A DNA stretch of 64,000 nt, taken from contig CAIIXF020000010.1 of the NCBI GenBank assembly GCA_903813345.2, forward strand, positions 35,391,425 to 35,455,424, written 5' to 3'. The DNA is from Owenia fusiformis (taxonomy: Eukaryota; Annelida; Polychaeta; Sabellida; Oweniidae). The position numbers were made by a program, and so were the translations under genes. The notes under the pieces are model-generated. The model ran no database searches, was not told where the DNA came from, and saw nothing but the letters and a program-made list of their open reading frames with translations. This document shows positions 1,884 through 26,322 of the stretch, in pieces (position 1 is the stretch's first letter; every line of letters begins with the position of its first letter).

Positions 1884-2331
1884 CTATTGTGGTAATGACC
1901 GTTGTTGAGAAAACGACAGATTGTGGGTATGTCCAGACGTATGACGGCCCACCTTCTAAGCCAAGTTTTTCACATTCTTTACCATCGTAACCAATCGCCA
2001 TGACTTTTCGCCTGAATGTATTCAATGTCCTATCGAACTGTCCTAACTTTCGCTCATCGTTATAACGTTCATTTTTAATTTTGACGATGCGTTGTAGAGT
2101 CACATTGTGCAGTTCGACGTATTCCTTTCGCTGTTTTTGACATTCTTCATGTTCATTATGTTGTTCCAAGTGTTCAAATACAAAGCCCCCGATAAGTAAA
2201 TAAACCACGACCAAAATGCACGAGCCAACATTGGAAAAGATAAATTTAAGAAACCTTTTACAATTGAAAACTTTCCCAAAACTTGCAAACTTTTTCTTTA
2301 TTTCTTGCGAACGTTCTCTTAAAGCTTCCAT
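1884..2331 (-). CDS. K2P potassium channel first coding exon, copy 1 (divergent)
   Basis: The exon encodes 149 residues plus one base. In order it has a basic cytosolic start, TM1 (about residues 32-55, ending GGFVFEHLE), an extracellular cap with an N-glycosylation sequon (HNVT), the shared IGYDGKEC block, and a first pore helix ending VITTIG. It stops at ATAG|GTAAAT, a phase-1 donor inside the first Gly codon of the T-I-G-Y-G selectivity filter; K2P genes commonly carry an intron at this spot. The family makes dimeric background K+ channels in the plasma membrane. This copy is the most divergent of the four: its N-terminus and cap differ greatly, while the TM1 end and pore helix are kept. 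The start is the first ATG, at 2331. The remaining three TM segments are not visible downstream (below 1884). It is either a gene continuing left of the window, an alternative first exon, or a truncated duplicate. Confidence 0.85.
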
Positions 2332-5085
2332 TTTAGTATGCGCAATAAAAATCCTACAATCTTCTAATAACCATCATATACTGAACATTATATATACATT
2401 AGTATAGAAAAGTAATTTTGTTTAGTTTATATATAATTTGAAATCTCTAATTGTCTATCTTGTGAAAACTATGACCGAGCTTCTCCTCTTTTGTATATGT
2501 CTCTATTTTGTAAATATTTTTAATAACTAATGGTGTAGCTTTTACGAGCGTGTACAAAAGGCATTAAGCACAATGTTATAGTATGAACAAAAATGAGACA
2601 TTAATTAATTAATATATGCCTGCAATTATCTAATAGTCACGATGCGTTTTTATTAGAAGTCGCAATTTTTCTACGATGGCTCACTTCTATAAAACAAATC
2701 ATTCGCGTCAGAGGACATCTTTGATTTTAAGAAATCGAAATCGTAACATTTAAGTTATCTTCAAGAACTACCGTAGATGTAGTTAAATCAGAAATGACAT
2801 TACAGACTAGAGAACACATACTATCAACGTATACTAATAAATAGTATCGGTTTTCAAACCATCTATTAATATCAGCGTGTCGAACGGGAGCTTCGATCAT
2901 ATGCACATCAATGATAAAACTGATTAATGCGAAAAATATTTCCATACCCAGAGGGAAATGAAATACCCCGAGGGAAATAAAAATGAAAGTGTCAGTCTGA
3001 ATTAAATATTACAAAATGTAGTGAAACTCAAACTCAGATTGAATTCTAAAATGAACGAGATATATGGTTTTAACAGGTAAACAATTGGCCCTTGGGCGTA
3101 TAAAGTTCTCTTTTACATGGTACTTGGCGATCGCCCACACAATATCAAACGCTGGCTGCAGATCTAGGCTGCATAGTATAGACACGAAAAATCTGCAATT
3201 TATAGAAAACGATCATCCGTGGTCAGATACATATCATAAAAAGGGAGAAGTGTAACGACGGTGATGAATTATTGGTTTCGATGATATGTTTACGATGTTA
3301 GTAAAGCCTTAGTGGATATAATCGTTGCTTAGCAACTTGAGATGCTAAAGGATAGCTTTATGATCAGGTATTCAGCTTTGTTGAGTAAATTAATATCCGC
3401 AATAACTGGACTGAAAATTGATGGAAAAATAATTCTTCTTGTGATCTAGACTAACAGTAGAACTGATAGGCACGTGTAATCTAAAATCCAATATTCTTTG
3501 TTTGATATAACAACACATAATACAATGCGATAAATCATATCATGATCGTCGACCAATATCAACAATATACTGCGATAAAATATGATTGCTCGTTTAATTT
3601 CCAAATGATCGTTATGGATTTCTACCTTTCCAATGATCCGGTTTCGATCCACTTTTATAAGAATAAAGAAATAAAACCATGTTCGACCTTTCTTCACCCC
3701 ACTTCATTAACGAATTGCTACAATGTCCAGCGTTAAAATATACCCCTGCTCAATCTGAATCCTCCAATCATCTCCTAGCATTTGTGAAAAGATACACCCA
3801 TGAGGATGCACTCCATACGTGTTAAAGTATTACTTACAATTCTTTGATCTCAGACTATAACAATTCATGCTTTCCTTGCAATTTGCGTGTGATTACATGA
3901 ATATTTTCTCCAAAGCGTTGCTACTAAAAAGGTATTTGCCTGATTTATATTCACGGGGAAACACATGATTAACCTTTTTGTACCCGCGGATATAGAAAGT
4001 TTCATTGAGCCAACTAAGATAAAAAAAGGTAGGAAAGAGAGGTATTCGAAGGTTTGTCTTTTAAACAATATCAATTCTTCACAAGGAATCGAGTGAATTC
4101 AGAAAAAATGATCAGACGGTATGTCAATATTAAAAGATATAGGAATGGGTTAAACTAGAAGAAGCATAATATTACTTGATCAGCACAATGGTTTGGTTTG
4201 GTAATTAACACTTAGTGCATCCCCTTTAAAATGATACAAGAGCACAGATTAGGCAACCACAACATTTATCATTGGAAAGCAAAACGACGCAATATCTATT
4301 TTATCTCGATATAAAATTAACAACGGCACTATGATTAAAACTACTTATCCCAAAAAGGAAACGGAAGAAGTGTCCAGAACAAAGGAAAATACAATTAATA
4401 ACTTCGATTTATTAACTGATGCAAAAACATTAGCCTCATATTCCATCGATCTTCGCTGTTTTTTTAATTTAAAGCAATATTTGAATATATTATGCCGTTG
4501 GAAACTGCTAGAAAAAACTAGGTTATGTTTTCTAAAAGGCAAACGAAAGGGCTTTCTTTGAGAGGAAAATAGGTAACAGTTTCACTCATTTCTTCTTCAT
4601 TTCTGTTGATTATCATCAGATTTTCTGGTTGTTAAAATAAGACATTTCATGAATTCGACCAAGTTTTGATAATACTTAATGTCATAGCAAGACTGCTTTG
4701 TCAGAACGTCTCCTTATTGACGTTTACGTAAAGAAAACTGAACACCTCTTTTGAGGATTCATTTAATTGTATGCTTGAACATAATGTTATTATCGAACTA
4801 TTCTCCCGGTGACACCCTTTTCTTGGTTATGTTAATCTATATACTGGGGATACATCACTTACTAAATTTAGTTTAACCTCTAAATTTAGGTTTGCGACTT
4901 CTTCAAACAAAAATGCACACCAGATTGCTTCAACATCCTACAAATGAAAACTCATTATACTTATTATTATAGGTAGTAATAGTAAACACCATTTCCTACT
5001 ATCTATATTTACCATTGTGTCAATATTTCCCGGTATTCGCTTACTGGTTATATTTGGATGATTATGCTTAATAAACAAGACCTAC
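2332..5085. other. spacer between K2P copies 1 and 2
   Basis: This is AT-rich sequence with no recognisable exon. It lies directly downstream of K2P copy 2 on the minus strand, so second and later exons would be expected here if copy 2 were an independent compact gene. Short minus-strand open frames at 2727-2945, 3446-3697, 3865-4074 and 4345-4542 do not resemble TM2, the second pore or TM4 of a K2P channel. Confidence 0.5.
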
Positions 5086-5515
5086 CTATTGTAGTTATAA
5101 CAGTGACTGAGAATAAAAGGGCCCCAGCATAAGACCACTGAAATGACGGACCACCCGTTTCACCCATAGTATCACAATCTTTCCCATCATAACCAATCTC
5201 CAAAACATTCTGACGGAAAGTTCTCAACGTTTTGTTGAATTCTTCCTCGGTTTTCGAGACAGCTAATGTACTGGAGAGGATCTCCATTAACCTTATTAAT
5301 GTTTCGTTCTCTTTTGGGTTGTACTGATCCCTTGCCTTGACACATTCTGTCCATTCATTATGTTTCTCTAAATGCTCAAATATAAAGCCACCGGCGATAG
5401 AGTAAGCCACGACCATACCACAAAGCCCAATATGGGAGAACAAAAACTTTAGAACTTTCTTGCATGTTTGTCCAACTGATCTTTTCTTCTTTTCGGTTTC
5501 CTCAACATCTGCCAT
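5086..5515 (-). CDS. K2P potassium channel first coding exon, copy 2
   Basis: The exon encodes 143 residues plus one base, ending at ATAG|GTAGGT. Residues 1-20 are acidic then lysine-rich and cytosolic. TM1 spans about 24-46, followed by EHLEKHNEWTECVKARDQY. The cap carries the sequon NET at residue 70 and a KTEEEF helix. An IGYDGKDC block follows, and the pore helix (about 125-143) ends VITTIG. It is very similar to copies 3 and 4; differences concentrate in the middle of the cap and spare TM1 and the pore helix. The start is the ATG at 5515, in a context shared with the other copies (MADxEETEKKK). The phase-1 donor falls inside the first filter glycine, as in copy 1. No second exon is visible before copy 1, about 2.7 kb downstream. 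Confidence 0.9.
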
Positions 5516-6089
5516 TATTTCAGGTATGTATTGTCTTTGAGTTTCTGCTTATTCTACCCCCTGAGAGTTGTTGAAACCAGTTGACGACTATTGATTCACT
5601 AATGTTATAGTCTTAATCACATGCTAATTATCACACCACTGACTCGCGTTAATCCATTCCAAGTACCCTTAAGTTTCTCCCAATGAAATCTGTATGCAAT
5701 AATAATCAGTGATACCACTGTAGTGCTGGCTACTTTATATCCTAACTCAACTATATTTTCAAATGTTTCCTCAGAACATCGTCTAGATAAAGCATATGCA
5801 TCAGTTCTTCCTTTATCTGCATCTTTAGCGCGTTTTATTGAAGGCTGGACTCCGGTTAAGCTCAACGACTTAACCACGGATCAATGGCATGGATCAATGG
5901 AGGTTACCTGTATACCCTTTGTTCGTCTTAAACAACAATATCGACCGACCCAACAACCATGAAAACCTCAATCCAAAGCGCTTAATAAATGGTTAATATT
6001 GCCAGGTTATTGATCCTAATCTGTTGCACTCTATTTCTTATATAACGTATGTCCACTGAGAGGTTACTGTAATCGTGTCAGCTGAAATT
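5516..6089. other. upstream flank of K2P copy 2
   Basis: This is probably the 5' flank and promoter region of K2P copy 2 (minus strand). Overlapping open frames on both strands at 5617-5962 have moderate complexity but match nothing I know. No TATA box or other core element can be singled out. Confidence 0.35.
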
Positions 6090-7510
6090 AAGGTAGTTGT
6101 TGAAGGGAGGAGGCTTGGGGATTATCGTTGAAATTTTGATTCAATTAAGAGTAATATCATGATCACGTTTATCTAAGAGAGACGTTGAAGCAAATGTTTG
6201 TCATTGGAATTTTGATTCAATAAAGAACAATATCATGATCACATTTATCTAAGAGAGACGTTGAAGGAAATGTTTGTAATTGGAATTTTGATTCAATTAA
6301 GAATAATATCATGATCACGTTTATCTAAGAGAGACGTTGAAGCAAATTTTTGTCATTGGAATTTTGATTCAATTAAGACCAATATCATGATCACGTTTAT
6401 CTAAGAGAGTTGTTGAAGGAAAAGTTTGTAATTGGAATTTGATTCAATTAAGAATAATATTGTGATCACGTTTATCTAAGAGAGACGTTGAAGGAAATGT
6501 TTGTAATTGGAATTTTGATTCAATTAAGAATAATATCATGATCACGTTTATCTAAGAGAGTTGTTGAAGAAAATGTTTGTCATTGGAATTTTGATCCAAT
6601 TAAGAATAATATTGTGATCACGTTTATCTAAGAGAGACGTTGAAGGAAATGTTTGTAATTGGAATTTTGATTCAATTAAGAATAATATCATGATCACGTT
6701 TATCTAAGAGAGTTGTTGAAGGAAATGTTTGTAATTGGAATTTTGATTCGATTAAGAATAATATCATGATCAAGTTTATCTAAGAGAGACGTTGAAGAAA
6801 ATGTTTGTAATTGGAATTTTGATTCGATTAAGAATAATATCATGATCACGTTTATCTAAGAGAGACGTTAAAGGAAATGTTTGTAATTGGAATTTTGATT
6901 CGATTAAGAATAATATCATGATCACGTTAATCTAAGAGAGACGTTGAAGGAAATGTTTGTAATTGGAATTTTGATTCGATTAAGAATAATATCATGATCA
7001 AGATTATCTAAGAGAGACGTTGAAGAAAATGTTTGTAATTGGAATTTTGATTCGATTAAGAATAATATCATGATCACGTTTATCTAAGAGAGACGTTGAA
7101 GGAAATGTTTGTCATTGGAATTTTGATTCAATTAAGAATAATATCATGATCACGTTTATCAAAGAGATCTGTTGAAGGAAATGTTTGTCATTGGAATTTT
7201 GATTCAATTAAGAATAATATTGTGATCACGTTTATCTAAGAGAGTTGTTGAAGGAAATGTTTGTAATTGGAATTTTGATTCGATTAAGAATAATATCATG
7301 ATCAAGTTTATCTAAGAGAGACGTTGAAGAAAATGTTTGTCATTAAAGTTTTGATTCAATTAAGAATAATATTGTGATAACATTTATATAAAAGAGTTGT
7401 TGGAGGAAATGTTTGTAATTGGAATTTTGATTCAATTAAGAATAATATTGCGATCACTTCATTGGAATGTTGGAATAACATTGTGATCACGTTCATCCAA
7501 GATAGTTGTT
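6090..7510. repeat. 76-bp tandem array, block 1
   Basis: About 18 head-to-tail copies of a 76-bp unit are present. The unit reads roughly TTTGTNATTGGAATTTTGA, then TTCAATTAAGAATAAT, then ATCATGATCACGTTTATC, then TAAGAGAGACGTTGAAGGAA. Copies differ at a few fixed positions: ATCATG versus ATTGTG before ATCAC, and GAGACG versus GAGTTG versus GATCTG near the end. In this block the GAGACG form dominates. The unit has no open frame and contains the palindrome TGATCA. The period was read directly from repeated words (8461 to 8537 in block 2). Confidence 0.95.
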
Positions 7511-8160
7511 GTAGGGGAGGTATGACCCTTAAATTATTTGCAATAATTTTATCAGAAATAATCAATTATCATATAATCTGCATGAAATTTCATCTCATCT
7601 TTAATTGATCCATTTCCTCTCAGGTAAAACAAACCAGATGTAAATCGCATGATAACTTTCTGTACTACCTTATATCAAAGAATATCACTATCACCAAAAC
7701 ATAAATTCAAATAGTATATTTTAACATGTAAACGTCATGAAAAACCTAATAAATACTGAAACCATCTGCAGAATAAAACAAGCTTCTCTGGTTGTAGAGT
7801 TGGGGTTCAAACGGATCCCCAAATCCTTCAAGTTTCGATTCGGCTAAGAATAAGATGGTTGTTGTAGGAGAGGTTTGTCATTGCCGTTTTGACTCAATTA
7901 AGAATAATATTTGATCCACTAAATCCACGGCAAATGTTGAAATAATTAAAATATTTCCACACCGACCTCAGAGAAAATATTTCCAGTGTTATAATCGATG
8001 ATTTTATCGATTAAAAATAGTCTTGTGAATTCGTTCGATATCTGCTGAAATATGGTATGTATACTTGTGTTGATTGTTAATAATTACAAAATAGGTAGGG
8101 TAAAGAAAATGTCAAAGTCGTTTGTTCTTGTCCCAGAAGCAATATTTTGTTATTTCATCG
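7511..8160. repeat. unique spacer A inside the array (duplicated at 10163)
   Basis: This is non-repetitive AT-rich sequence between the two blocks of 76-bp units. The same sequence recurs about 2,652 bp further on, at 10163-10810, with small indels and substitutions. The spacer and its adjoining array block therefore form one large duplicated unit. Shared words include GGGGAGGTATGACCC and CATGATAACT. No gene is seen. Confidence 0.85.
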
Positions 8161-10162
8161 CCCAGAATTTCATTAAGAATAATTTTGTGATCACTTCTAT
8201 CCATGAGAGTTGTTGAAGGGGAGGTTTGTCATTGACGTGTTAAGTCAATTAAAAATAATATTGCGATCACGTTTATCTAAGAGAGTTGTTGAAGGAAATG
8301 TTTGTCATTGAAGTTTTGATTCAATTAAGAATAATATCATGATCACGTTTATCTAAGAGATCTGTTGAAGGAAATGTTTGTCATTGGAATTTTGATTCAA
8401 TTAAGAATAATATTGTGATCACGTTTATCTAAGAGAGTTGTTGGAGGAAATGTTTGTCATTGGAATTTTGATTCAATTAAGAATAATATCATGATCACGT
8501 TTATCTAAGAGAGTTGTTGGAGGAAATGTTTGTCATTGGAATTTTGATTCAATTAAGAATAATATCATGATCACGTTTATCTAAGAGAGTTGTTGGAGGA
8601 AATGTTTGTCATTGGAATTTTGATTCAATTAAAAATAATATTGCGATCACGTTTATCTAAGAGAGTTGTTGAAGGAAATGTTTGTCATTGGAATTTTGAT
8701 TCAATTAAAAACAATATCATGATCACGTTTATCTAAGAGATCTGTTGAAGAAAATGTTTGTTATTGGAATTTCGATTCAATTAAGAATAATATTGTGATC
8801 ACGTTTATCTAAGAGAGTTGTTGAAGGAAATGTTTGTCATTGGAATTTTGATTCTTCAATTAAGAATAATATCATGATCAAGTTTATCTAAGAGAGTTGT
8901 TGAAGGAAATGTTTGTCATTGAAGTTTTGATTCAATTAAGAATAATATTGTGATCACGTTTATCTAAGAGATCTGTTGAAGGAAATGTTTGTTATTGGAA
9001 TTTTGATTCAATTAAGAATAACATTGTGATCACGTTTGTCTAAGAGATTTGTTGAAGGAAATGTTTGTCATTGGAATTTTGATTCAATTAAGAATAATAT
9101 CATGATCACGTTTATCGAATAGAGTTGTTGAAGGAAATGTTTTCTGATTGGAATTTTGATTCAATTAAGAATAATATCATGATCACGTTTATCTAAGAGA
9201 GTTGTTGAAGGAAATGTTTTGTAATTGGAATTGTGATTCAATTAAGAATAATATTGTGATCACGTTTATCTAAGAGAGTTGTTGAAGGAAATGTTTGTCA
9301 TTGGAATTTTGATTCAATTAAGAATAATATCATGATCACGTTTATCTAAGAGAGTTGTTGAAGGAAATGTTTGTCATTGGAATTTTGATTCAATTAAGAA
9401 TAATATTGTGATCACGTTTATCTAAGAGAGTTGTTGGAGGAAATGTTTGTCATTGGAATTTTGATTCAATTAAGAATAATATCATGATCACGTTTATCTA
9501 AGAGAGTTGTTGAAGGAAATGTTTGTCATTGGAATTTTGATTCAATTAAGAATAATATTGTGATCACGTTTATCTAAGAGAGTTGTTGGAGGAAATGTTT
9601 GTCATTGGAATTTTGATTCAATTAAGAATAATATCATGATCACGTTTATCTAAGAGATTTGTTGAAGGAAATGTTTGTCATTGGAATTTTGATTCAATTA
9701 AGAACAATATCATGATCACGTTTATCTAAGAGAGTTGTTGAAGAAAATGTTTGTCCTTGGAATTTTGATTCAATTAAGAATAATATCATGATCACGTTTA
9801 TCTAAGAGAGTTGTTGAAGGAAATGTAAGTCATTGGAATTTTGATTCAATTAAGAACAATATCATGATCACGTTTATCTAAGAGAGTTGTTGAAGGAAAT
9901 ATTTGTCATTGGAATTTTGATTCAATTAAGAATAATATCATGATCACGTTTATCGAATAGAGTTGTTGAAGGAAATGTTTGTCATTGGAATTTTGATTCA
10001 ATTAAGAATAATATTGTGATCACGTTTATCTAAGAGATCTGTTGAAGGAAATGTTTGTCATTGAAGTTTTGATTCAATTAAAAATAATATTGCGATCACT
10101 TCATTGGAATGTTGATTCAATTAAGAATAACATTGTGATCACGTTTATCCAAGATAGTTGTT
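8161..10162. repeat. 76-bp tandem array, block 2
   Basis: About 26 copies of the same 76-bp unit as block 1 are present. Here the GAGTTG ending dominates and ATCATG and ATTGTG subtypes alternate in runs. Several neighbouring copies are virtually identical, which points to recent local amplification or homogenisation. No coding potential is seen. Confidence 0.95.
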
Positions 10163-10810
10163 TTAGGGGAGGTATGACCCTAAAATTATTTGCAATAATT
10201 TTATCAGAAATAATCAATAATCATATAATCTGTATGAAATTTCATGTAATCTTTAATTGATCCATTTCCTCTCAGGTAAAACAAACCAGATGTAAATCGC
10301 ATGATAACTCTCTGTACTACCTTAGATCAAAGAATATCACAATCACCAAAACATTAATTCAAATAGTATATTGTAACATGTAAACGTCATGAAAAACCTA
10401 ATAAATACTGAAACCATCTGCAGAATAAAAAAAACTTCTCTGGTTGCAGAGTTGGGGTTCAAACGGATCCAAAAATCCTTCAAGTTTTGATTCAGCTAAG
10501 AATAAGATGGTTGTTGTAGGGGATGTTTGTCATTGACGTTTTGACTCAATAAAGAATAATATTTTAATCACGTTTTGATCCACTAAATCCACGGCAAAAG
10601 TTGAAATAATTAAAATATTTCCACACCGACCTCAGAGAAAATATTTTCGGTGTTATATATAATCGATGATTTTATTAATTTAAAATAGTCTGATATATTG
10701 TATGTATACTTGATTGTTAAATTACAAAATACCTGTAGGTAGGGTAAGGAAAATGTCAAAGTCGTTTGTTCTTGCCCCAGAAGCAATATTTTGTTATTTT
10801 CATCGCCCAG
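10163..10810. repeat. spacer B, second copy of spacer A
   Basis: This is a near-identical copy of 7511-8160, lying 2,652 bp downstream. A few small deletions distinguish it, for example near 10680-10720. It marks the second period of a higher-order repeat made of one array block plus one spacer. Confidence 0.85.
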
Positions 10811-11420
10811 AATTTCATTAAGAATAATTTTGTGATCACTTTTATCCATGAGAGTTGTTGAAGGGGAGGTTTGTCATTGACGTGTTAAGTCAATTAAACA
10901 TAATATTGCCATCACTTCATTGGAATGTTGATTCAATTAAGAATACGATTGTGATCATGTTTATCCAAGAGAGTTGTTGTTAGGGAGGTATGTCGTTAAA
11001 GTTTTGATTCAATTACGAATATTTTTGTGATCACGTTTATAACAACTCTCTTAGATAATTATCATGTTTATCCAAGAGAGTTGTTGTTGGGGAGGTATGT
11101 CGTTAAAGTTTTGATTCAATTACGAATATTTTTGTGATCACGTTTATAACAACTCTCTTAGATAATTATCATGTTTATCCAAGAGAGTTGTTGTTGGGGA
11201 GGTATGTCGTTAAAGTTTTGATTCAATTACGAATATTTTTGTGATCACGTTTATAAAAACTCTCTTAGATAATTATCATGTTTATCCAAGAGAGTTGTTG
11301 TTGGGGAGTTGAGGTATGTCGTTAAAGTTTTGATTCAATTTGGAATATTTTTGTGATCACGTTTATCTAAAAGAGTTGTTATCGGGGAGGTTTGTCATTG
11401 AAGTTTTGATTCAATTAAGG
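10811..11420. repeat. degenerate array tail with 107-bp palindrome-bearing unit
   Basis: After a few degenerate 76-bp units, the array changes to a 107-bp unit repeated about three times (tacgaatattttt at 11014, 11121 and 11228). The new unit contains AACAACTCTCTTAGATAA, the reverse complement of the unit end TTATCTAAGAGAGTTGTT, so each copy can fold back. This variant arose by an inversion within a unit followed by tandem amplification. Confidence 0.85.
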
Positions 11421-11646
11421 TCATTGAACTATATTCTACTACCTTTTCAGATTCTTAATTTTTCTCATCATATGCAATTTTAGGGAAACTGTTGGGCTTC
11501 CTTAATTGGACTATCGATGAATATAATTCATCTATAATTCATTTCAAGGGTGTGTATGTGGCGGGGGGGGGGTAAAAACAAACAAATGGGCTCTCTTTTC
11601 AGATCGTCATTTTCCACGTATCTATTATATGACATTTCCGTATTTA

Positions 11647-14600
11647 GACAGGTTCCAATTTCAGAATATCTCAAGGGAAAGGGTTTTTGAGGCATTTTTT
11701 AGAAAAAGCAACAGACCTATTTCTTCTGGATCAGTTTTTCATGCTGATAAAGATATTAAAAGATGACAGCTCAACGGGGTGGTCACGACACTGAATTTTA
11801 GCGTTTTTACCCCCCTAGGAAAATATTCTAGGGGTACTATGAAACTAGTTCATAACTCAAAGGATATATAAACTATTGTTCTGAGTTCTACAGCATACAT
11901 TGTTAGTACAGAGATGAATACTACCCTAAAGTTATAGGTTGATATCTTTGTTGGTTTTGGAAAAATACAATTAATTAGAAAAAAATATGCAATTTTTGTC
12001 ATTTTTTTCTTGCTTATTTTATATTTGTAGCTTCAAGCAAAATATGATAACTTAAACAGCTCAAAGTAGTATTCTAACAACATTTCCAAGCTATGTGTGA
12101 TATTGTAATACATCTATTATAGTGATGAAGTACTATTTTGTAATTTTAATATGACTTTATAGTGCCCTACCCCTGGTAAATAGAAGAAAGTTGGTGTGGT
12201 TTTCTTCTGTTTTTTAACATTTTATTGTCTTCTTAGTTGAAGATACAATCAATTCTGTCAGTTAACCATGAGAAGCTTTACAATGGTTAACTATTCCCAT
12301 GAATAGAGGGTTGGGACCTCAAAAATACTGTTAAGTGGCATCCTTGGGCAACCCTCTTCAGAGCATTTTCCTTATACTCCGATAAAATCTGCAGGGGATA
12401 CTATAAGAAACCTATATATCTAAGATACTAATGAAGATACTGAATTCAAATTTTCAGGATTTGGTCCTGGTATGATAGGTAATCTGTATGACAAAAATGA
12501 CAAAAAGAAAAAACTCTGTTGCCATAGTAACAAGAATACGACACTATTTGTTTCCTAAGAAATGTGTTTTAAGAGGTTTTGTCATTCTCTTCATATTTTT
12601 AATTCTAAATATGTCTACAATGTGGGATGATTAAAATTATGGTTAAAAAAAATATTTAAAATTATTAAGTAATCTTTTCTATTGTTCTATTGTTCTCTAA
12701 AACAGAAGTTGCTAGGGCGACACATAGATCATAGAAAAAATCCTGAGATGATCGCTCTATTTGTCAGGAAATTAAAATGGAAACTGAAAAATGAGTTTCT
12801 TCCTACTGAATAGCAATTTGGTAGACCATGGCTGACACGCACAAGAGAAAACGTCTATCAGTTCTATGTCATTTTGTTGTTATTCTTATTTATTTATCGT
12901 GCTCTGGGACTTATAACACTTAATGCCGAATCTTTTCCAACTGCAAAGGAAGGCAAGATTTTAATAATGAACATTCATATATCTCAACAAATATGGCCTA
13001 AGATTTGGACAATGATGATGAAACTCTGAGGGAAAATTAGACGAAACATTAATGTGAGTGGTCCAAAAATAACACTTACATGTTTTGAAAAAGTTATGCT
13101 CTCGGGTAAATCAGTGCTCATTTAAGGATAGTCTGAATCAGGTGAATTTTTTAACCTAATTGTACCCCTCCCCCAAACACCCAAATTTTGACAATTGTCG
13201 AAAAGTGGCAAACAACAATTAAACAAACATCATTAAAGTTCAATATGGCTATTTCGCTTCTATGTCATAAAGATGTGGTACGATCTCAGGTCAATCAATA
13301 AAGTTCACAAGTGACACTCTATCTTATGAAGAAAATATTATCGTATTTGAAGACATGTCAAGAATTTGGTGGAAATAATTTTGTCACTCCTGATTTGACT
13401 TGGAAAGGTTCAGGTAAGTAATCACAAACAATTTCAGACAGTTATATCTTTGATTATGACTATTTTCTGACCATGAAGACAGGTATACAGGGATAATTAA
13501 GTCAATCGGACTCAGAGATATTTCACTAGCAATCAACCCATCAATATATTTTTTCAAAGTTGTTGACCTCATTTTCACCAAAAATGCCATCATTTTAACA
13601 ATGTTAACAATTCGGTGTCTTTAAAGTCCCTGGAGCAATCCACTTTTCCTCTTAGGAAATAGAACATGTCTCAAAGCATATTCTAATTATGCATTCAACA
13701 ATATAATTAAAGGTTGCATCTTTGGTAAAAATTAGGTCAACATTTTTAGTAAAAAGTATGTTGATTGGGCCATTCCCTTTAATATCACTTAGGTCTGATT
13801 TCAATCATTATATTTACTTTTCTTGAAGATAATGAATAGATCTAAAAGATATAAGTCAGAAAATATTCATAATTCAAGTTAGAATTGTCTGAAGTTGTAC
13901 AGTAGAACCTGTGTAAGTGGAACACTCTCCGTTCTGCCACAAAGCGTACCACTTAGAAGGTGTTCCACTTATGGAGGTTTTGGGTTCGCAGGGAACATAC
14001 AAGATCAAATATAGGATTTATATGTATCATTGGAAATATGATTCTCCCTTCATTACAGGGCAGGTATATACCATTAATAATCCATTTAATTTACTCAAAA
14101 AGGTATCTGACATTCGTAATCCTCCTCATTCTGCCAAAAATGTTTTCTGACATTCTTAATCCTCCTAATTGTGCCAGTCTCGGGTACAAAGATTAGTCAA
14201 TTAAGTTTTAAAGACTTGTTCCTACTGCTAATAATTCAATTGTTTTTAAATGACATTTTTAATCTTACTTATTAAGTTTGAAACAAACAGCAAGGGATAT
14301 TAATTAGTGGTAGCATCACGTGTCCAGTTCTACAGGAGGTTAATCCAATTTTCTGAATGATAATCTTATGAAATCCTAATTTGCTGATTATCAAATTTAT
14401 TATTGGTTGCATCACATGTTGATCTCTACAGGAGGTTAATCCATTAAAGTCCTAATTTGCCAATTATCACAGTATTACCTGTTTTCATACCCAGATATCA
14501 TTGAAGGAGATTAATTCTGTTTACATATATCAATATTGAAATCTATGGAAATTGACTGTTCCACTTAGCAGGTTAATTTTTCAATATGGGGTGTTCACTG

Positions 14601-15565: not shown

Positions 15566-18325
15566 TAATTGTGATCACACCGTGCATTATCCTCTGTATT
15601 TCGACTTACATGGCAATGAGACAATAACATCAATAGAGAAACACGAAAATAATGAACGCGAGCGGCGGTGTAGACTCTGTACGCATATCCGTTAACAATT
15701 ATCAATATATATCGGCAAATTTACAGTGACCGTGACTGTCTTCCATTTAGAATGAAAGATGATAGGCCTCTTTCTTCTATTTTCTCATGTAGTCGATTGG
15801 CATTTCTTATAGAAGTTCTATATTTAAATTGATTCTTTATTTTGGTTTTGTGCAGCGTGGAGTGAGCTTAACATGTAAATATGCGTCTTGTCTCCAGCAT
15901 GTATTGTAATGACTTAATTTTGAATGAAATGTCAATTTTTGTTATGGTCCCGAATCGTGATATTGGTGCTTGAATGACGGAGGGGGGGGGTATTAGACAA
16001 TGTTTCTTTTCACGGTGGATTATGATTAGGGATAGTTGGGGTTTATTATCCCTATGACTGGTATACTAGCTATATGATATTTTTTATTTATTTATCTATA
16101 TATCTATTTATTTGTTTATTCGTTTTAATTATTTATCTATCTCTTTAGTCATGCAAATACCTTCACTTTTGTAACCGTGCCACATACACTTTTTTAGTGT
16201 GTGACTAAACATAAAACCGACTAAAGACATCTACATGAAAATAATACGATGAGCAATGCAAATATTTGATTTTGCTACCACCGTCATCGTACTCGAAGTA
16301 GTTTATCAAAAGTCCCGGGGCTTGTAGCATTGGCATAGGAAGCGTTTTACGGCGTTATTCGATAGTCTTGTTGGATTGAATAGTCAATATTACCCTTTAC
16401 ATTCGTCCGTTGTAAAAGGGTAGGAGGTCCTATTGATTTATGGTCCTGCCCTTATTATCTTATACACAATCAAGGCCAGTAAGGGCCGTTGAGAAAGGGG
16501 ACCATAATCCCTGGGGGACCATAATTTATTTCACACCGTCTTCCCTTCTTATAGGATAGCTTCGTCATCTAAGCGCGGGGTAGTCAATAGTATTGGACGC
16601 TACATTAATTTAGTGCATTACTCTATGTTTAATCGCTGTATACTCTATGATTTATACTATTATCTTAATGAAACAAGTGGAAACTTATGTAACATTAATC
16701 AAAGTTCACAAGGAGAATAATAAGGATAGACAAATAATAGGTAAAACATTCGTAATAAAATAATTAACAAAGGGCTATATATTGACTCGCCACGTGATCA
16801 AATCTAACCAATCATAATATTGCAATGATATTCTTCTGTTATACAGGTATTCTTCCAGTCAATTAGAATATTGATACCTTGAGGAATCATCAAACTTACT
16901 TATTGATGTGTTGCATCCTATAAATACAGTTTACCGGAGCTATGCTTATGTTTAAAGTTGCTCTAGGCACATACTTGTCCTATGTTACTTATATGTTAAT
17001 GGGCGTAGCTATGAGGGGGGGGGGCGATGGTTCCAATCGCACCCCCAAAAAAGAAAGAAAGCAATTTTGTAAAATTTAATGAAAAAACATTAACAAATTG
17101 TAGTTCGAAATGCTTAGAATGCACCATATACAATGTATATTTTGAAAATACTCTTTTTAGGACTCGCTTCGTTTGCAGTGATACAAACCCCAAACGTCAC
17201 GTCTCCCTTGACAATTGCTGGCTTCGCCCCTGATGTTATTAATTCACTTTCTAATTTTGTGTTCAGTGCATACGATGACATGTGCGAAGATGGTATCGCG
17301 CGGTACTATCTTCAGAACATATTCTATTGTGCATAGAAACCCAAAATACCAAGCATTCAATAAAGATGAGTATATAGTTATTCAAGTAGAAACCTACGTG
17401 TAACTTCAGAACCTATTCTTTTGTGCATAGAAACCCAAAATACCAAGCATTCAATAAACATGAGTATATAGTTATTCAAGTAGAAACCTACGTGTAACTT
17501 TAGGTTTCCCGATCTAAAAATGAAATACTTGAAACTGAACGGGAACTGAAATAGTACAAAAGCATGTGCGTTCAACACGCAACCTGTTCGACTTATTTGC
17601 AAGCTCAACTCTCTCAGGTTGTGAAAACAGTAGCAGTCGCATGTTTCTATTAAAGTTTTATTGTCGCAGAGGTCTGAATTATGCAACTGATATTATATTG
17701 ATCATTTATCATATATTTATCCCTGTAAATGAATCAGTTAGCTTATACATAATGGTAAACATTTATTGTAATCCCACTAATTATTCCTATTTTAAGCTTT
17801 TAAGCTAAGTTTGATAAAACTGTAAACTGTAAAAAGTGAACGATCTGCCCTTAGAATTAAAAAGGCACAAACACAAGGAACTCGTTGTACTCCTTTCATA
17901 GGAAGAGGAAATGTTTCACTCTTATGATACTTTCAGAAAGGAAGCCTGTTGTTACAATGATAAATAACATACAGTTCAGGGGTATATAGAATGCTAATTA
18001 CCGCACTATCACCTTCATGAATTATTGTATTTTATTATTTTATTAGTTCATTCACATCAGTTTCCTTTTTAATAAGTGTTGTCCCCTTGTTCAAATTAGT
18101 TTTCTAAACGTTTATCTAAGCTTGACTTATATAATTCAATTTTTATTTCCTTCAATTGTTCATTACGGAAACAATTTTAAATAACTACGATATATTAAAC
18201 TTTCTAAGTAGGCTATTAATCGGGAAATAAAAAGACAGACAAAGATAAAGCCCAACAAACAATACGAAATATAAAAAATACAAATCGACGATCACAAGAC
18301 CGGTTTTGTTTTAGAATAAACCTAC
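15566..18325. other. intergenic region downstream of K2P copy 3
   Basis: No gene is recognised. It contains an ATTT-type simple repeat (about 16081-16142), a G-run near 17017, and a 94-bp exact-phase tandem duplication (listed separately). Between about 16998 and 17232 there are weakly matching ends (GGGCGTAGCTA and TGGCTTCGCCCC) that might be an old MITE. Minus-strand second exons for K2P copy 3 would be expected here if it were an ordinary gene; none was recognised. Confidence 0.45.
17310..17497. repeat. 94-bp tandem duplication
   Basis: Two adjacent copies (17310-17403 and 17404-17497) share nearly every base, including GTGCATAGAAACCC, CAAGCATTCAATAAA and AAACCTACGTGTAA. The high identity suggests a recent duplication. 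No function is evident. Confidence 0.9.
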
Positions 18326-18752
18326 CTATTGTAGTAATGACAGTGACTGAGAATAAAAGAGCTCCGGGAAAAGTCCACTGAAACGACGGGCCCCCCTTTT
18401 CACCCATATTATCACAGTCTTTTCCATCGTAGCCGATCTCCAAAACATTTAGCCGAAAAGTTCGCAATGTTTTGTTGAATTCTTCTTCTGTTTTCGAGAC
18501 AGCCAAAGTGCTTGTAACAATTTCCATGAGTCTATCAATTGTTTCATTTTCTTTTGGCAAATATTGGTCTCTTGCTTTAACACACTCCGTCCATTCATTG
18601 TGTTTTTCGAGATGCTCAAATATAAACCCACCGGCCACCGAATAACCGACCACCATGCTACAAAGCCCTATATGTGAGAACAAAAATTTGAGCACTTTCT
18701 TGCATGTTTCACCAATTTTCTTCTTCTTCTTTGGCTCTTCAGTTTCCGCCAT
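18326..18752 (-). CDS. K2P potassium channel first coding exon, copy 3
   Basis: The exon encodes 142 residues plus one base, closing at ATAG|GTAGGT inside the first filter glycine. The start is taken as the ATG at 18752 (MAETEEPKKKKK), which aligns with the starts of copies 2 and 4; the frame stays open upstream to 18797 but without an earlier ATG. TM1 is followed by the cap with sequon NET, then KTEEEFNKTLRTFR, IGYDGKDC and a pore helix ending VITTIG. Compared with copy 2 it has SVAGG in place of SIAGG at the TM1 end and several changes in the cap helix after the sequon. About 12.8 kb of repeats and transposons separate it from copy 2. Confidence 0.9.
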
Positions 18753-21324
18753 GTTGTCAGATCTCACTTGTTGTTTGTCTTTGAATTGATTCAACAAATG
18801 ACTGTTTGTTTTTTATTTTTACTCCAAAAATCTTATTAATGGAATAATAACTGATGATGCTTTGTAATTGATGTCTAATTTGTTACAATTCGTGATCCCA
18901 AAGATCGACAAGATATGTTACATCTTACATCAAGTGCCCTAACTTCTGAAGTGAACGGGTTCTGTATTGGTGTATGTACATTCCAAAGTTGAATAACCAT
19001 ATCAACAAATACGATTTTGCGGCGATCAATTGACCGAATCAATCTCAACATTCACTACACTGTTAGAATTTAGCAATAATATCGACATAAAGAACCATGA
19101 AATTTTAAAACCCAATGTAATTAATGAATGGTAAATAATACATTTCCCTGATGTTATTGATTGCATCTTCGCATGTATACAAAACCATTGTTTTCTATTG
19201 TATTCTTGTTGTCACTACCGAAAAGAAAAATGTAACGATATTCACATTCTAAATTCAGAATGTGCAAACATAACCATTTCCGAAAAACGAGTAATTCTAC
19301 AAACAGCTAGTGAACATCGTAACACTTGAAGAAATATATGAGTTATATTCACTTCTTTCAAATTTTAGATAAAAATGGCGGGAAATATGGAATAAGCAGA
19401 CGACACTTCAGCGATTGGTTAATAGGCTCCATTCACGCAGAGTTAGAGAATGCAAATTATCGTGACAGTACCTCTTGTGGATAAAAACATCAACAAACGC
19501 GTTATATTATATTGAATTTAAATAATAATGACAATGACAAGTAATCATTATTTCGTTCAAAGGAAAAGTCAATACCCGGGTAGTTCGCGAAGTAGTCGCG
19601 TTTCGTTCAGTGAAGGAGTTGCGCGCGACTCAAATTGGCAGCTGACATACAATAATATTTAGACACATGCTTACTGTATGTCCCGCTGTATGTCTTAGAT
19701 AAAGTAATGAACTGATGGTATTTTGCAGCATATAAATTATTATTCGATCCAATATCAGGGTTCCATAAATCTTGATCATAATTAACCCGACCTGTAGTCA
19801 TTCATTATTTATCAATTTGGCAGACAGTCGGTGTTATAAAAAAATATAAATAGATAAGCACACCGGCGACTTTTCCCAAATATTTTACATCATGTAACCA
19901 TGAATTGTGTATAGCATAGATAAATCAATACACTCCCCATCGTAAGTTTGGTAACTGATTTGGTAAGTCGTTTTCGGATCAATTGTCAAAGCACATTTGT
20001 TTGACGATTTGAAAGATCAACGTCATGAATGCCATTCTGTTCGTAAGTCAAGTGAAGGTGACGAAAAGAACTACTAGTATTCGAAGCTTAATGCCGAGGA
20101 TGACCTTCAATGGACGTAGGTTCACGGACGAAAGTTTTATAAAGGTACCATTGAGACACCCATAAGATTCAAGAGAGTACAGAGGACATCATCACCAGGT
20201 AAAGGGCGACATCTATAATTCACTGTTCATTTGAGATATAAAATCAAAGTTGAAATCGAAATAAAAAATTTCGGAAAAGATGTAAAATGGTGTTATAGCA
20301 GTTTGAGAAAAATTCGTATTACTCTTACACGCATAGCGTAACATGCGCCAAAACCCTGTGTTCCAAATATATGAGCAACGGTGTATATCTTGTGTTAGCC
20401 TAAGAATTGAACCACTTAATGTGATATCGACATTTTTGCTTTAGGATATTGGTGGAGATATTGAAGGTAATAAAATATTAATGTACCAACATAATTCTTT
20501 TGCAAATCAAGTAAATCACGCCACCTATCGGATATGGTGTCATTTTACATAATTGTACACCTTCTTCTATCAAAAGAGGGCATATTTGTCAAGAGTGGAT
20601 AAGTTGTATATTGTATATGAATTCGCGTGTTTTCTCGTTATTAGAAAGTTTAAGCTAGCGACATTTTTCACAACGTAACAGTGAACGCAAAGCCAATGGA
20701 TCAATACAATATATAGCGCATACAGAACAAGCGCTACTTAGTCTTTAGTCTACTTCAAATACCCGATCAGCTTCAGAGCTGAGTTTAACAGGAATCATTA
20801 TAACTACCAATGGCATAGTACACGATGATATGTAGTCTATGCAACGGACCAAGTAAACACTGTAACCGAACGAGTATTTTTGTGAGAAAACCACATGCAT
20901 TTGTATAGGGCAACTTATGCGTACATGTTGACGTTTCGATTTTATATGCATTGCTTAATTAAAGTCTCTGGATATCGGCCGGGTTAGTTAAGTTTGTATG
21001 ACTTCTAGGTTCAATAGACGTTACATGGCAACGTAAATTATATTAAACAACCCATCTTGATGGTATTTTGTCTAATGACTATGGCGTCCACTATCAATAT
21101 TTAATAGCCTACATCCATATCTTAATCAAACTAATTGAGCATTATCCTCATTCTGTGTCCTATATAGCGAGAAAATACCTCAACAGTCAACACACAGGCC
21201 GTGGGGTCACATGACATTGCCAAGCCAATCATAGCAATAAAATATTGTCATATGACACATAGCTTGAAAACACATTTTCGGTCGCACATTGTTGTTTACT
21301 CTATAATTGCATTTCGATAAAGTA
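18753..21324. other. upstream flank of K2P copy 3 and intergenic DNA
   Basis: This is the 5' flank of copy 3 followed by AT-rich sequence. A short segment at about 19565-19640 (CAATACCCGGGTAG then GTTGCGCGCG) has a diverged relative at about 31575-31640, so it is probably a dispersed repeat. No exon is recognised. Confidence 0.4.
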
Positions 21325-22305
21325 CAGGGCGTTCAATAAGTACTGATAAAATGCTGTAACTTTTTTATTTTTTTCATATATCTGACTACTTTTCGTAGGG
21401 TGCATTTTTGAGTATTATACTAATGTAGTGTAGCCAAAGGAGGTTAGTGGTGGATCAGGTCTGCACGAAAGAAGTTGCTTAAGCACCGCGGGCAATTTGT
21501 CCCACATCAATGTCATTTCTAAATAATTATGAATAACATGGTTTTCATGACTAACACTTGAATCAGTCATGTCTGCAATGTTACTGATAGGAATTCATTC
21601 AATATTTCTTTTATTGCATAAATCTGACAATGGGAAGTTGCAGCTTTTGGTCACCCCTGTCTAGGTTCATCTTCAACTGACTTTCTCCCTCTTTGAAATA
21701 GCAGAACCGGCGATACATGCTAGGGGTAGATATAGTGTCCTTCCCATAAGCTTTATGAATGTCCTTTATCGTATCCTGTTTTGATTTACCTAAGTGTATA
21801 TAGAACTTGATGCTGCTTCTAATTTGATGGTGAATATTATTGATATTCTGTTCAGCAGCCATGTTGTTGATGACATAATTTCTGCAGAGTTCATGGGATG
21901 TATATTTTTCAATGATGTCATCTGAATAATCTTAAAGTGCCATGTGGTGTAATTGTATTCTTATGAATTGCTCCTTGATGTCATTTCCACCTTACAAACT
22001 GCTCTTTGATGTCATCGATAGGTGTTGCAAAGGTATCTTAGTATACAACTGTTTATTTACCATCTATCAATAATAAAATCATGTATGAAAATGTTCATAT
22101 TTTAAGTCGGTTATTTTTCGTGCAGGCCTAAACCACCACGAACCACCTTAGGCTCAACCCAGTACCATCTTTCTGTTAAAAAACACTCTTGAGACTCCCA
22201 CAGTACATCAGTACAATGCTCAACAATATGCAGTAGAAAAGTTAGTCAGAAATATAAAAGATTTAAAAGTTACAGCATTTTTATCAGTACTTATTGAACG
22301 CCCTG
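21325..22305. mobile_element. mariner-family transposon, deleted internally
   Basis: This 981-bp element is bounded by inverted repeats CAGGGCGTTCAATAAGTACT (left) and its complement (right). The arms are about 38 bp and the element is flanked by TA on both sides. It carries the N-terminal part of a mariner-type transposase on the minus strand, listed separately. The catalytic DDD/DDE half is missing, so it cannot move by itself. Confidence 0.9.
21611..21862 (-). pseudogene. mariner transposase N-terminal fragment
   Basis: The 83-residue frame includes IKFYIHLGKSKQDTIKDI and AYGKDTISTPSMYRRF followed by CYFKEGE. This is the helix-turn-helix DNA-binding pattern at the start of mariner-type transposases (KFxxxLGKS...AYG...W/RRFKEG). 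The ATG at 21862 is a natural start. The frame then runs out with no catalytic domain. In mariners this region binds the inverted repeats. Confidence 0.8.
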
Positions 22306-23534
22306 TAGATATACTTTTAGTAAAATTAACACGGTATAAGTATGCTTCATAGTCAAAAAAAGTATTGGTGTTACAGATTAAAATACAGTATAATATCTCC
22401 AAAACAGGATTTTTCAATTTCTGCACATGGAAAGTTTCTAACTAAAGTTAATTTTAAGGTAACATAAATCAAAGATCACAATTTTTGTATAATTTCTTGT
22501 TAATTATGTTGCAACATTCATTTATCAAAAATGCCAGTATTGGGTATGACTCATTTAATCTATCGAGATATCACTATAAAACAAATATAAAAAAAACAGT
22601 TTTCGAAATTGAGATTATATGGAACATATCCTAAAGCTACAGCTAAACACTCATCAAGCCATAGCTCTTATGCCATTGCATGGAAACAACTAGCTGAATT
22701 GAAAACATCTCATCCGTGTTATCATAATGATACACCAGTCCGGATCATCAGCGATGATTCCACATTGGTTAGCTGTCAATTTCCAACGTAATTTATTTGT
22801 TATGATAAAGTCTATGTCAATATTACATCGACGCAAAGTGCATTAGATTTACCATAAACCAATACTGTCATGCTAATAGCCAGCAACAATTCAGGCAGTG
22901 CATAATAATATTATGAACGAGTTTCAGATGGAATATAACAGTTTTTTACGAAGGCCCCCCACGAAGTGGGCGGAGCCATTCGTTCTATGGACCGACTGTC
23001 GACCATTCACGTGACCAAAAGTCCGCCATTATTACCTTATATGGCAAATCATCAAAGCAACGATCACGACGTCAAATGTTGTGTTTGTGATGATATGACG
23101 TTATATAACATAAACTATGACGTCAGTTACTTATTGCCCTATCAACTAAACAGACAAGAAAGCTAAACGGCACACATCACAGTGTTTAATATATTTTAAT
23201 TTGTGACGTCATTAATATGTTACCTAACCAACAGAAAACAAGCAGTTACATGTAGTTTGTTCATTGTCTTTCTCTGTGGTATTTTCATAAAAAGTGGATC
23301 AGTTTTGTCAAAATAGCATTATGGCCTTCGTATTTTTCTAGTGTCATTTTCACTTGATTTTCTTGTTACATTGTCCCAAGAATGTCATTCTTTACAACAA
23401 GATACATTTATGAACATGATTTTTCTGATTCTTATTGATGTTTTTTCCCTGTATCAATAGCTGAGAAGTTTATCGATTACCCATAGTCTTGTACCAAGAC
23501 CACTTTCTTCCTTATCTTCAGCTTATTTATTAAT
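22306..23534. other. intergenic region, no gene seen
   Basis: This is AT-rich with a slightly GC-richer patch at 22950-23170. An open frame there (22966-23166) lacks any recognisable motif. Nothing else is supportable. Confidence 0.4.
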
Positions 23535-24790
23535 TTTAGGTACGTTTTCCGTCTAGGAATTTGATACATGTAATCTTAATTAGAGGTTCGTTTTGAAATG
23601 ACGTTATCAGCCTAGGAACGTGCTAACCATGGTATTAACGGGGAATTGGTTTTTAAATGTCGTTATCCGTCTAGGAACGTGCTAACTAACAGTATGGTCT
23701 TAATTTGAGGTTCGTTTTGAAATGTCATTTTCAGCTGAGGAACGTGCTAACCAAGGTCTTAATTCTAGGCTCGTTTTGAAATGTCGCTATCCGTCTAGGA
23801 ACGTGCTATTCAAGGTCTTAGATTGCGATTCGTTTTGAATTGTCGTTATTTGCGGTTCGTTTTGAAATGTCGTTATCCGTCTAGGAATGTGCTAACCAAG
23901 GTCTTAGATTGCGATTCGTTTTGAATTGTCGCTATCCGCCTAGGGACGTGCTAAGTAACAGTATGGTCTTAATTTGAGGTTCGTTTTGAAATGCCCTTTT
24001 CAGCTGAGGAACGTGCTAACCAAGGTCTTAATTCGAGGTTCGTTTTGAAATGTCGTTACCCGTCTAGGAACGTGCTAACCTTGGTCTTAACGGGGATTCG
24101 TTTTTAAATGTCGTTATCCGTCTTGGAACGTGCTAACTACTGCATGTAATGGTCCTTATTTGCGGTTCGTTTTGAAATGTCGTTATTCGTCTAGGAATGT
24201 GCTAACCAAGGTCTTAGATTGCGATTCGTTTTGAATTGTCGCTATCCGCCTAGGAAGCTGCTAGCCATGGTCTTAACGGGGACTTGGTTTTGAAATGTCG
24301 TTATCCGTCTAGGGACGTGCTAAGTAACAGTATGGTCTTAATTTGAGGTTCGTTTTGAAATGCCCTTTTCAGCTGAGGAACGTGATAACCAAGGTCTTAA
24401 TTCGAGGTTCGTTTTGAAATGTCGTTACCCGTCTAGGAACGTGCTAACCTTGGTCTTAACGGGGATTCGTTTTTAAATGTCGTTATCCGTCTTGGAACGT
24501 GCTAACTACTGCATGTAATGGTCCTTATTTGCGGTTCGTTTTGAAATGTCGTTATTCGTCTAGGAATGTGCTAACCAAGGTCTTAGATTTCGATTCGTTT
24601 TGAATTGTCGCTATCCGCCTAGGAACCTGATAACCATGGTCTTAACGGGGATTTGGTTTTGAAATGTCGTTATCCTCCTTTGAACCTGCTTACCATAATC
24701 TACTTAATATGAGGTTCGTTTTCCCCTTAGGAACGTGCTAACCATGGTCTCAATTCGATAATCGTTTTGAAATGTCGTTATCCACCTTGT
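23535..24790. repeat. ~60-bp tandem array with 369-bp higher-order period
   Basis: About 20 copies of a 58-65-bp unit are present. The core words are GGTTCGTTTTGAAATGTCG, TTATCCGTCTAGGAACGTGC and TAACCAAGGTCTTA. Distinct monomer types (for example AGTAACAGTATGG, and the CAGCTGAGG variant) recur in the same order at 23943 and 24312. That gives a six-monomer higher-order repeat of 369 bp. No open frame is maintained. Confidence 0.95.
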
Positions 24791-25892
24791 AAACAAAGAG
24801 GAGAAATTAATTAGTTAATCTGGTACATTATGCTGTTCGAGTATCATTAGAAATTAAAATGACGCTCACAAACACACGTTCGCAATTCACAGTTTTTAGC
24901 CGATCGTAGTTTTGGCGCATCACAATGACGTTTTTAATTGATGAGTACAGTGTAATTGATGGGAACGATTAAACATTGACACGGGGGTATTTTCTGATTC
25001 CTACCATGTTTACATTCCGTTCAAACATTCTTGTAGATCGATATATGGCATTTAGGTTATGACAATGTGCCAGAATACTTTTAATTAATATATTTCATAA
25101 ATAATTAATTAGTAATTAAGTAGGAAGATGGGACTGATTCGTTCGAATTAAATGTATATGCTATTGTTGTTATTATCATCCTCCCTGCTTTACTGATAAA
25201 TTCTTTCAAAATCATGCAATTTTTCACCATTCTGAGTGATTTTGGCCATATTTGGGCAAAGTTATCTAACCTGAACCCCCTTGGAACTTTTTAAAAAGTG
25301 ACCCCCCCCCCCCCTTGGCAAATCCTGGCTCCTGGCCTGATCTGTAATCTTCATTGGACATGCATATCATTATAAATTCATATAAAAAATATAAAACGTT
25401 TCACATTTTAGAGGTTGTATTTTATACTAATGACTATATTGCGATTGTCTATAACATGACATCCTCTGACACCAGGGGTAGTGCGAATTTTGTCAACTAA
25501 GGTAAACTATGGGGCAACATAAATAGATAGGAGCACAGGGGCTTGATGTAACAATATGCCAGTAACAAGGGAAGAGATAGATTAGGATTAGGTGGGAACA
25601 AAGAGTCGATGTAACAATAAAGTAATGAAAATGTACAATAAAGTAATGAGAGCGTACAGGGGCGAATCTCAAAATCACAAGGGTGGGAGAGGGGGTCAAG
25701 AATGTCGCTTTTGAGGCCCGCCAAAGGGAGAGGCTAGGCCCCATCCCGATATCTACCACTATAAATGTAAGAGATAATGAGAACACACGACCGGGCTTCG
25801 TATATCAATATGCTAATGATAATATAAGATATAGATTAGGCCTATGGGTGCGGGGGCTTGATTCAACAACATGTACGTAGTATAATACCTAC
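24791..25892. other. downstream flank of K2P copy 4
   Basis: No exon is recognised. It holds a 13-base C-run (25302-25314) and, at about 25530-25680, loosely repeated words (AGTAATGA, GTACA, CAATAAAGT). A second exon for K2P copy 4 was looked for here and not found. Confidence 0.4.
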
Positions 25893-26322
25893 CTATAGTA
25901 GTAATTACAGTAACAGAGAACAACAGAGCCCCAGGGTAAGACCATTGAAAAGCCGGCCCATCCTCATTACCCATGTTCTCGCAGTCCTTCCCATCATAAC
26001 CGATCTCTAATACATTAAGACGAAATGTTCTCAAAGTTCTATTAAACTCCTCTTCCTTCTCAACTAAAGTTCTTTGGCTACCCATCACCTTTACCAATCG
26101 CTTTATTGTTTCGTTCTCTTTGGGCATATACTGGTCCCTTGACTTGATGCATTCTGTCCATTCATTGTGTTTTTCCAGATGCTTAAATATGAAACCTCCG
26201 GCAATAGAGTAAGCCACGACCATACCACATAGCCCAATATGGGAGAACATAAACTTTAGGACTTTTTTGCATATAGTTCCCAATGTTTTCTTTTTCTTTT
26301 CTGTATCATCCATATCAGCCAT
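25893..26322 (-). CDS. K2P potassium channel first coding exon, copy 4
   Basis: The exon encodes 143 residues plus one base, ending at the same phase-1 donor (ATAG|GTAGGT). It starts at ATG 26322 with MADMDDTEKKKK. TM1 is almost identical to copy 2 but ends FIFKHLE where the others have FIFEHLE, so one acidic residue becomes lysine just outside the membrane. The cap keeps WTEC and the sequon NET. It diverges most in the next helix (VMGSQRTLVEKEEEF), then returns to the shared TLRTFRLNVLEIGYDGKDC and the pore helix ending VITTIG. Of copies 2-4 it is the most diverged in the cap. Confidence 0.9.

What the first reader, a model, noticed from the sequence alone, without database searches (positions are those of the whole stretch)
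1884..26322. Four paralogous K2P 5' exons with no downstream exons between them
Seen: four minus-strand exons with the same layout (start, TM1, cap, first pore helix), all ending at an identical phase-1 donor inside the first Gly of the first selectivity filter, and no recognisable TM2, second-pore or TM4 exon after any of them. Known: K2P genes often have an intron at this filter position. Inference: the cluster may supply alternative first exons spliced to one shared set of downstream exons left of base 1, so that cap and TM1 are swapped while the rest of the channel stays constant. I am not aware of such an arrangement having been described for K2P channels. Alternatives are tandem genes with exons I failed to see, or truncated duplicates.
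Basis: partly seen in the sequence, partly recalled or inferred. Interest (0 to 1): 0.75.

Follow-up and report, generated by a model that had tools for sequence, protein, structure and literature searches.

The report
Potassium channel with swappable first exons
In this animal genome one potassium-channel gene appears to carry five interchangeable front halves and a single shared back half, so one gene could make five channels that differ in their outer cap and first pore.

Summary
The four minus-strand exons sit exactly where reported. A fifth copy lies just left of base 1 (window -73 to -565). One 266-residue exon (window -14990 to -15789) supplies GYG-TM2-TM3-second pore-TM4-stop, behind a good acceptor and in the matching phase. 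Each first exon plus this exon gives a complete K2P frame of 408-430 residues. The next K2P-pore match on this chromosome is 8.8 Mb away, and profile scans of 114 gap-free kb find five first exons and one second exon. Four related K2P loci in the same genome are 1:1, including two tandem genes on C5. The five exons are old (silent sites near saturation) yet intact, with omega about 0.06, and their similarity stops near the exon borders. I read this as one gene with a variable-first-exon array, built like UGT1 or protocadherin clusters, that swaps M1, cap and first pore helix. No RNA evidence was available, and constraint on the terminal branches of E3 and E1 is not shown. Confidence 0.87.

The parts
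25893..26322 (-). E1, alternative first exon (143 codons plus 1 base): N-tail, M1, cap, first pore helix, TTI of filter 1
25887..25892 (-). donor of E1, G|GTAGGT, phase 1 in the filter Gly codon
18326..18752 (-). E2, alternative first exon (142 codons plus 1 base), same layout
18320..18325 (-). donor of E2, G|GTAGGT, phase 1
5086..5515 (-). E3, alternative first exon (143 codons plus 1 base), same layout
5080..5085 (-). donor of E3, G|GTAGGT, phase 1
1884..2331 (-). E4, alternative first exon (149 codons plus 1 base), the most diverged copy. Two further parts of the gene lie left of base 1 and so have no window coordinates: E5 at -73 to -565 (genome C10:35391351-35390859) and the common second exon at -14990 to -15789 (genome C10:35376434-35375635), both minus strand
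1878..1883 (-). donor of E4, G|GTAAAT, phase 1

Best explanation
One K2P gene on the minus strand, about 42 kb long, with five tandem alternative first exons (E1-E5) and one common last exon. Each first exon encodes N-tail, M1, extracellular cap, first pore helix and the first half of the first filter. Shown from sequence: the five exons and their donors, the single common exon with its acceptor, the matching phase, and a complete channel frame for every joining. Inferred: each first exon has its own transcription start; its donor is joined to the common acceptor; first exons lying in between are passed over because they offer no acceptor; cells choose among starts, so cap and first pore vary while TM2, TM3, second pore, TM4 and the long loop stay constant. 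Also inferred: the array arose by repeated duplication of the first exon in the long first intron that this K2P subfamily already had.
For: Five first exons in one orientation and one second exon behind them in matching phase; complete frames of 408-430 aa. Joined E2 and E4 products (2 of 5 scanned) each hold two Ion_trans_2 domains; the E2 product matches KCNK3 at E 6e-25 with a stretch running across the junction. Only one second exon: PF07885 gives 67 matches genome-wide, two near the locus, both in the common exon, next on C10 8.8 Mb away; the common exon as query gives 20 matches, one on C10; profile scan of 114 kb without N. Four of four other loci of the subfamily are 1:1. Old but constrained: third-position differences 0.45-0.68 against 0.09-0.37 at positions 1-2, omega 0.061 on 141 codons, five terminal branches together differ from 1 at p 3e-40. 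Similarity between copies is confined to the exon and at most about 15 bases past the donor.
Against: No transcript data. Separate terminal-branch tests do not reject neutrality for E3 (omega 0.31, p 0.83; 1.36, p 0.97 with outgroups) or E1 (p 0.060; 0.099), and E5 is borderline (p 0.023; 0.081). No promoter evidence for any first exon. Acceptor-like sites close upstream of E3 (-45) and E5 (-24) exist at the looser setting. Introns of 14-41 kb would be needed, though two relatives have 16 and 45 kb.
Confidence: 0.87

Rival explanations
1. One normal gene (for example E5 plus the common exon) with first-exon duplicates that are truncated and not used, or only some of them used.
For: No RNA evidence for use. 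Terminal-branch omega of E3 and E1 does not differ significantly from 1. E4 is much diverged (48-50% identity to the others).
Against: All five frames, start codons and donors are intact although silent sites are near saturation; E2, E4 and (in one of two models) E5 are separately constrained, and E2 plus E3 together give omega 0.055, p 1e-27.
Confidence: 0.08
2. Tandem complete genes whose own second exons were missed or lost in assembly.
For: C5 in the same genome does carry two tandem complete genes. A GYGNI reading stands at window about 2949.
Against: Genome-wide and profile searches find one second exon; the 114 kb hold no N. Second exons as old as the first exons would not be identical and so should not collapse in assembly (inference). 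The GYGNI stretch has no acceptor AG and no further likeness.
Confidence: 0.03
3. The five exons are mutually exclusive second exons behind one shared untranslated leader exon, chosen by splicing and not by promoters.
For: Acceptor-like sites at the looser setting upstream of E3 (-45) and E5 (-24).
Against: E1 has none within 500 bases at either setting and E4 only one, at -475. The five stretches together hold 1 against 7.1 expected (stricter setting, which 4 of 6 known acceptors pass) and 8 against 14.3 (looser, all six pass). Random windows were not matched for composition.
Confidence: 0.1

Closest known systems
UGT1, GCNT2 and protocadherin alpha/gamma variable-first-exon clusters (PMC1885805, passages seen)
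   Same: Tandem array of large, paralogous coding first exons, each able to join one common downstream part; the variable part is the N-terminal recognition half, the constant part the rest.
   Different: A K+ channel, split inside its selectivity filter; one constant exon in place of 2-4; an invertebrate-type genome; own promoters and splicing not shown here.
K2P genes with alternative upstream exons: twk-40 of C. elegans (PMC9049526, passages seen); mammalian TREK N-terminal variants (recalled)
   Same: K2P gene with more than one start exon, and for twk-40 reported differences between isoforms in behaviour.
   Different: There the isoforms share the whole 393 aa channel and one at least gains an N-terminal stretch; here M1, cap and first pore helix themselves are exchanged.
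Related K2P genes of the same genome: two on C12, two on C5
   Same: Same two-exon layout with the intron in the first filter Gly; first introns of 44.7 and 16.2 kb in the C12 genes.
   Different: One first exon per second exon in all four.

Membership tests
[quoted passage not shown]
   Two Ion_trans_2 stretches in the joined E2 and E4 products (the joined E1, E3, E5 products were not scanned); filters TTIGYG and TTIGFG.
[quoted passage not shown]
   Joined E2 product: best match KCNK3, E 6e-25; 127 PDB sequences at E <= 0.001, 60 shown, K2P on top.
[quoted passage not shown] dimer; K+ leak current | not testable with these tools
   TM and cap limits are mine by eye and by alignment; no TM predictor, structure model or assay was run.
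Variable-first-exon gene clusters (UGT1/Pcdh type) | Tandem array of paralogous coding first exons in one orientation | tested here: met
   Five exons, minus strand, E <= 8.1e-68 to the profile.
Variable-first-exon gene clusters (UGT1/Pcdh type) | One common downstream part with matching splice phase | tested here: met
   One second exon, phase 1 acceptor.
Variable-first-exon gene clusters (UGT1/Pcdh type) | Each first exon has its own promoter | tested here: inconclusive
   Only indirect: few acceptor-like sites upstream of the five starts.
Variable-first-exon gene clusters (UGT1/Pcdh type) | Transcripts joining each first exon to the constant part | not testable with these tools
   No RNA data held.

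The most novel reading that the evidence does not exclude
A leak channel diversified the way protocadherins are: cell-specific choice among five starts swaps cap, M1 and the first half of the first filter on a constant core. As K2P channels are dimers, co-expression could give up to 15 subunit pairings, with the cap as tuned outer surface or partner-choice surface.
Probability: 0.35. Interest if true: 0.8.

Novelty: new variant of a known kind. Interest (0 to 1): 0.63.

Why it matters
It would be a natural domain-swap series in a K2P channel: five caps, M1 helices and first pore helices on one constant core, split exactly in the selectivity filter. That makes directly testable how much of K2P gating, partner choice and localisation is set by the cap and first pore module. 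It also extends the variable-first-exon architecture to a pore-forming channel, and such an array could easily be misannotated as broken tandem genes.

Tried and rejected
Tandem complete genes: rejected after genome-wide second-exon searches and profile scans of the locus. The GYGNI reading near window 2949 was looked at as a possible relic of a lost second exon: it shares 13 of 15 bases with the start of the common exon by my own count, has no acceptor AG and no further likeness; I treat it as chance.

Branch-by-branch selection tests gave mixed results and are reported as such. In one search, NG86 saturated and YN00 failed for 8 of the 10 pairs among E1-E5, so I use likelihood values and raw position differences. 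The topology was set by me as (E1,(E2,E3),(E4,E5)) and that follows the tree. A first, uncalibrated acceptor scan (none in 300 bases upstream of any of the five) was replaced by the calibrated one.

Species identification failed: a search for the assembly size in papers listed nothing fitting.

Ten literature searches were made. Eight bore on this arrangement. Three listed all they found (11: 2 papers, 12: 6, 27: 7); the other five listed only the top 20 of 362, 15 of 253, 12 of 805, 10 of 1,326 and 12 of 5,395, and I saw titles and abstract beginnings only. No listed title or abstract start described such a K2P gene. The library lacks most subscription journals. Structure prediction was not run: the spliced products are not literal translations of one stretch, and a first exon alone would say little.

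Full report
WHAT WAS CHECKED. I fetched flanks to get 114 kb without any N: C10:35351425-35465424. The four reported exons are at the stated places, all on the minus strand: E1 26322-25893, E2 18752-18326, E3 5515-5086, E4 2331-1884. Each has an in-frame stop upstream in the genomic DNA, an ATG, M1, cap, first pore helix and TTI, and ends after the first base of the filter Gly codon. Donors are G|GTAGGT in E1-E3 and G|GTAAAT in E4.

WHAT LAY OUTSIDE THE WINDOW. Left of base 1 is a fifth first exon, E5, at window -73 to -565, donor GTAGGT. Farther left, at window -14990 to -15789 (genome 35376434-35375635), is one exon preceded by tttttcag. It opens GC TAT GGG and encodes 266 residues, counting the Gly completed by the upstream G, through TM2, a long charged loop, TM3, the second filter TTIGFGD and TM4 to a stop. 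Joined to E1-E5 it gives frames of 409, 408, 409, 415 and 430 residues. Two of the five joined products, E2 and E4, were scanned with Pfam; each has two Ion_trans_2 matches. The E2 product matches solved K2P channels, best KCNK3 at E 6e-25, with one stretch (residues 122-192) running across the junction. TM limits are mine, by eye and from alignment.

ONE COMMON EXON ONLY. PF07885 has 67 matches in the genome. Two lie near the window, both in the common exon; the next on C10 is 8.8 Mb away. This search does not see first exons, which end before the filter is complete. The common exon as query gives 20 matches at E <= 0.01; one is on C10 (itself), and the next best are on C12 at 54% and 44% identity. 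Six-frame pieces of the 114 kb (6269) searched with a six-member second-exon profile give this exon (E 1e-81), then nothing below E 0.17; a seven-member first-exon profile gives the five exons (E <= 8.1e-68), then nothing below E 0.19. The locus's own exons were members of both profiles.

INTERNAL CONTROL. Searches with three first exons found relatives at E <= 0.01 at C10 (five), C12 (two) and C5 (two; one of the two only with the C12 query). Each C12 and C5 first exon has one second exon behind it: C12 567159/521869, C12 12007866/12024496, C5 27249206/27256219, C5 27259998/27261203 (profile rescan of nine held loci). So four of four other loci are 1:1 and C10 is 5:1. C5 shows what ordinary tandem K2P genes look like here. 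The six second exons whose borders I printed all start at the same place after an AG, and the two C12 first introns are 44.7 and 16.2 kb. I infer that the intron position and a long first intron are older than the array. K2P genes elsewhere (C1, C8 and others) were not paired with first exons.

NOT DEAD DUPLICATES. Amino-acid identity among E1-E5 is 48-85% in the ten pairs. Third positions differ at 0.45-0.68 of sites and positions 1-2 at 0.09-0.37; likelihood omega is 0.02-0.16. A codon model on 141 shared codons gives omega 0.061. All five terminal branches together give 0.061 and reject 1 at p 3e-40; E2 plus E3 give 0.055, p 1e-27. Singly: E2 0.035 (p 1e-4), E4 0.09 (p 0.003), E5 0.028 (p 0.023), E1 0.118 (p 0.060), E3 0.314 (p 0.83). 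With two C12 outgroups and 128 codons: E2 p 3e-5, E4 p 0.001, E5 p 0.081, E1 p 0.099, E3 omega 1.36, p 0.97. So constraint on E3 after its split from E2, and on E1's own branch, is not shown. In 3-kb flanks, likeness between copies is confined to the exon, from no earlier than 4 bases before the ATG to at most about 15 bases past the donor; the other listed matches are neighbouring copies that fall inside the flanks.

PROMOTERS. There is no direct evidence. Acceptor-like sites in the 500 bases upstream of the five starts number 1 against 7.1 expected at the stricter setting (p 0.007; 4 of 6 known acceptors pass it) and 8 against 14.3 at the looser one (p 0.05; all six pass). The random windows were not matched for composition. 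This leans to five true first exons, not to mutually exclusive second exons behind one leader.

WHAT VARIES. Mean pairwise identity among the five is 0.49 in the N-tail, 0.59 in the cap, 0.75 in M1 and 0.72 in pore helix and filter. All five have four Cys with the same spacing. E1, E2, E3 and E5 have two N-glycosylation sequons in the cap and E4 one. At the place of the first cap Cys the two C12 relatives have other residues. That a cap Cys can link the two subunits of a K2P dimer is recalled, not tested.

HOW IT MOST LIKELY WORKS. Inference: each first exon is transcribed from its own start; transcription runs through the first exons farther on, which offer no acceptor, to the common exon; the donor joins the common acceptor over 14-41 kb. 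The choice of start sets cap, M1 and first pore helix. If the protein tree is rooted on C12, E5, the copy nearest the common exon, branches off first (support 69), then E4 (95), with E2 and E3 as sisters (69). This would fit E5 as the oldest position, weakly.

KNOWN OR NEW. The architecture is that of UGT1, GCNT2 and protocadherin clusters (PMC1885805, passages). In K2P genes alternative upstream exons are known: twk-40 of C. elegans has isoform-specific upstream exons before a shared 393 aa channel (PMC9049526, passages); mammalian TREK N-terminal variants are recalled. Eight searches of an open-access library listed no K2P gene that swaps M1, cap and first pore helix; five of these lists were capped, so this is weak evidence of absence. 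I file it as a new variant of a known kind.

LIMITS. No RNA, no related genome, no species name; the assembly is taken as given.

Noticed in passing
window 53106-59873 (+) and 60245-60628 (+): A large single-exon type I polyketide synthase frame (2255 aa: KS, AT, DH, methyltransferase, ER, KR domains) followed by an acyl carrier protein exon.
   Followed up: partly
window 21611-21931 (-): Piece of a mariner-type transposase (HTH_48) between E1 and E2.
   Followed up: partly
window 37489-41542 (+): Reverse transcriptase piece of a retroelement (RVT_1 for 37489-38016; the frames after it were judged by eye).
   Followed up: partly
window about 2949 (-): Reading SGYGNI resembling the start of the common exon (13 of 15 bases by my count), behind a pyrimidine-rich stretch but without an acceptor AG; probably chance, possibly a relic.
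   Followed up: partly
L009:746-8707 (+), 30-40 kb left of the window: Repeated Kazal-like and Kunitz-like Cys-rich frames on the other strand, the next gene beyond the K2P 3' end (by eye, not scanned).
   Followed up: no
G000 C5:27249206-27261999 (L018, L019): Two tandem complete K2P genes of the same two-exon layout, a useful contrast to the C10 array.
   Followed up: yes
G000 C8:14490864-14523074: Cluster of three K2P second-exon-like places, some matches with stop codons inside; introns or decay not resolved.
   Followed up: no
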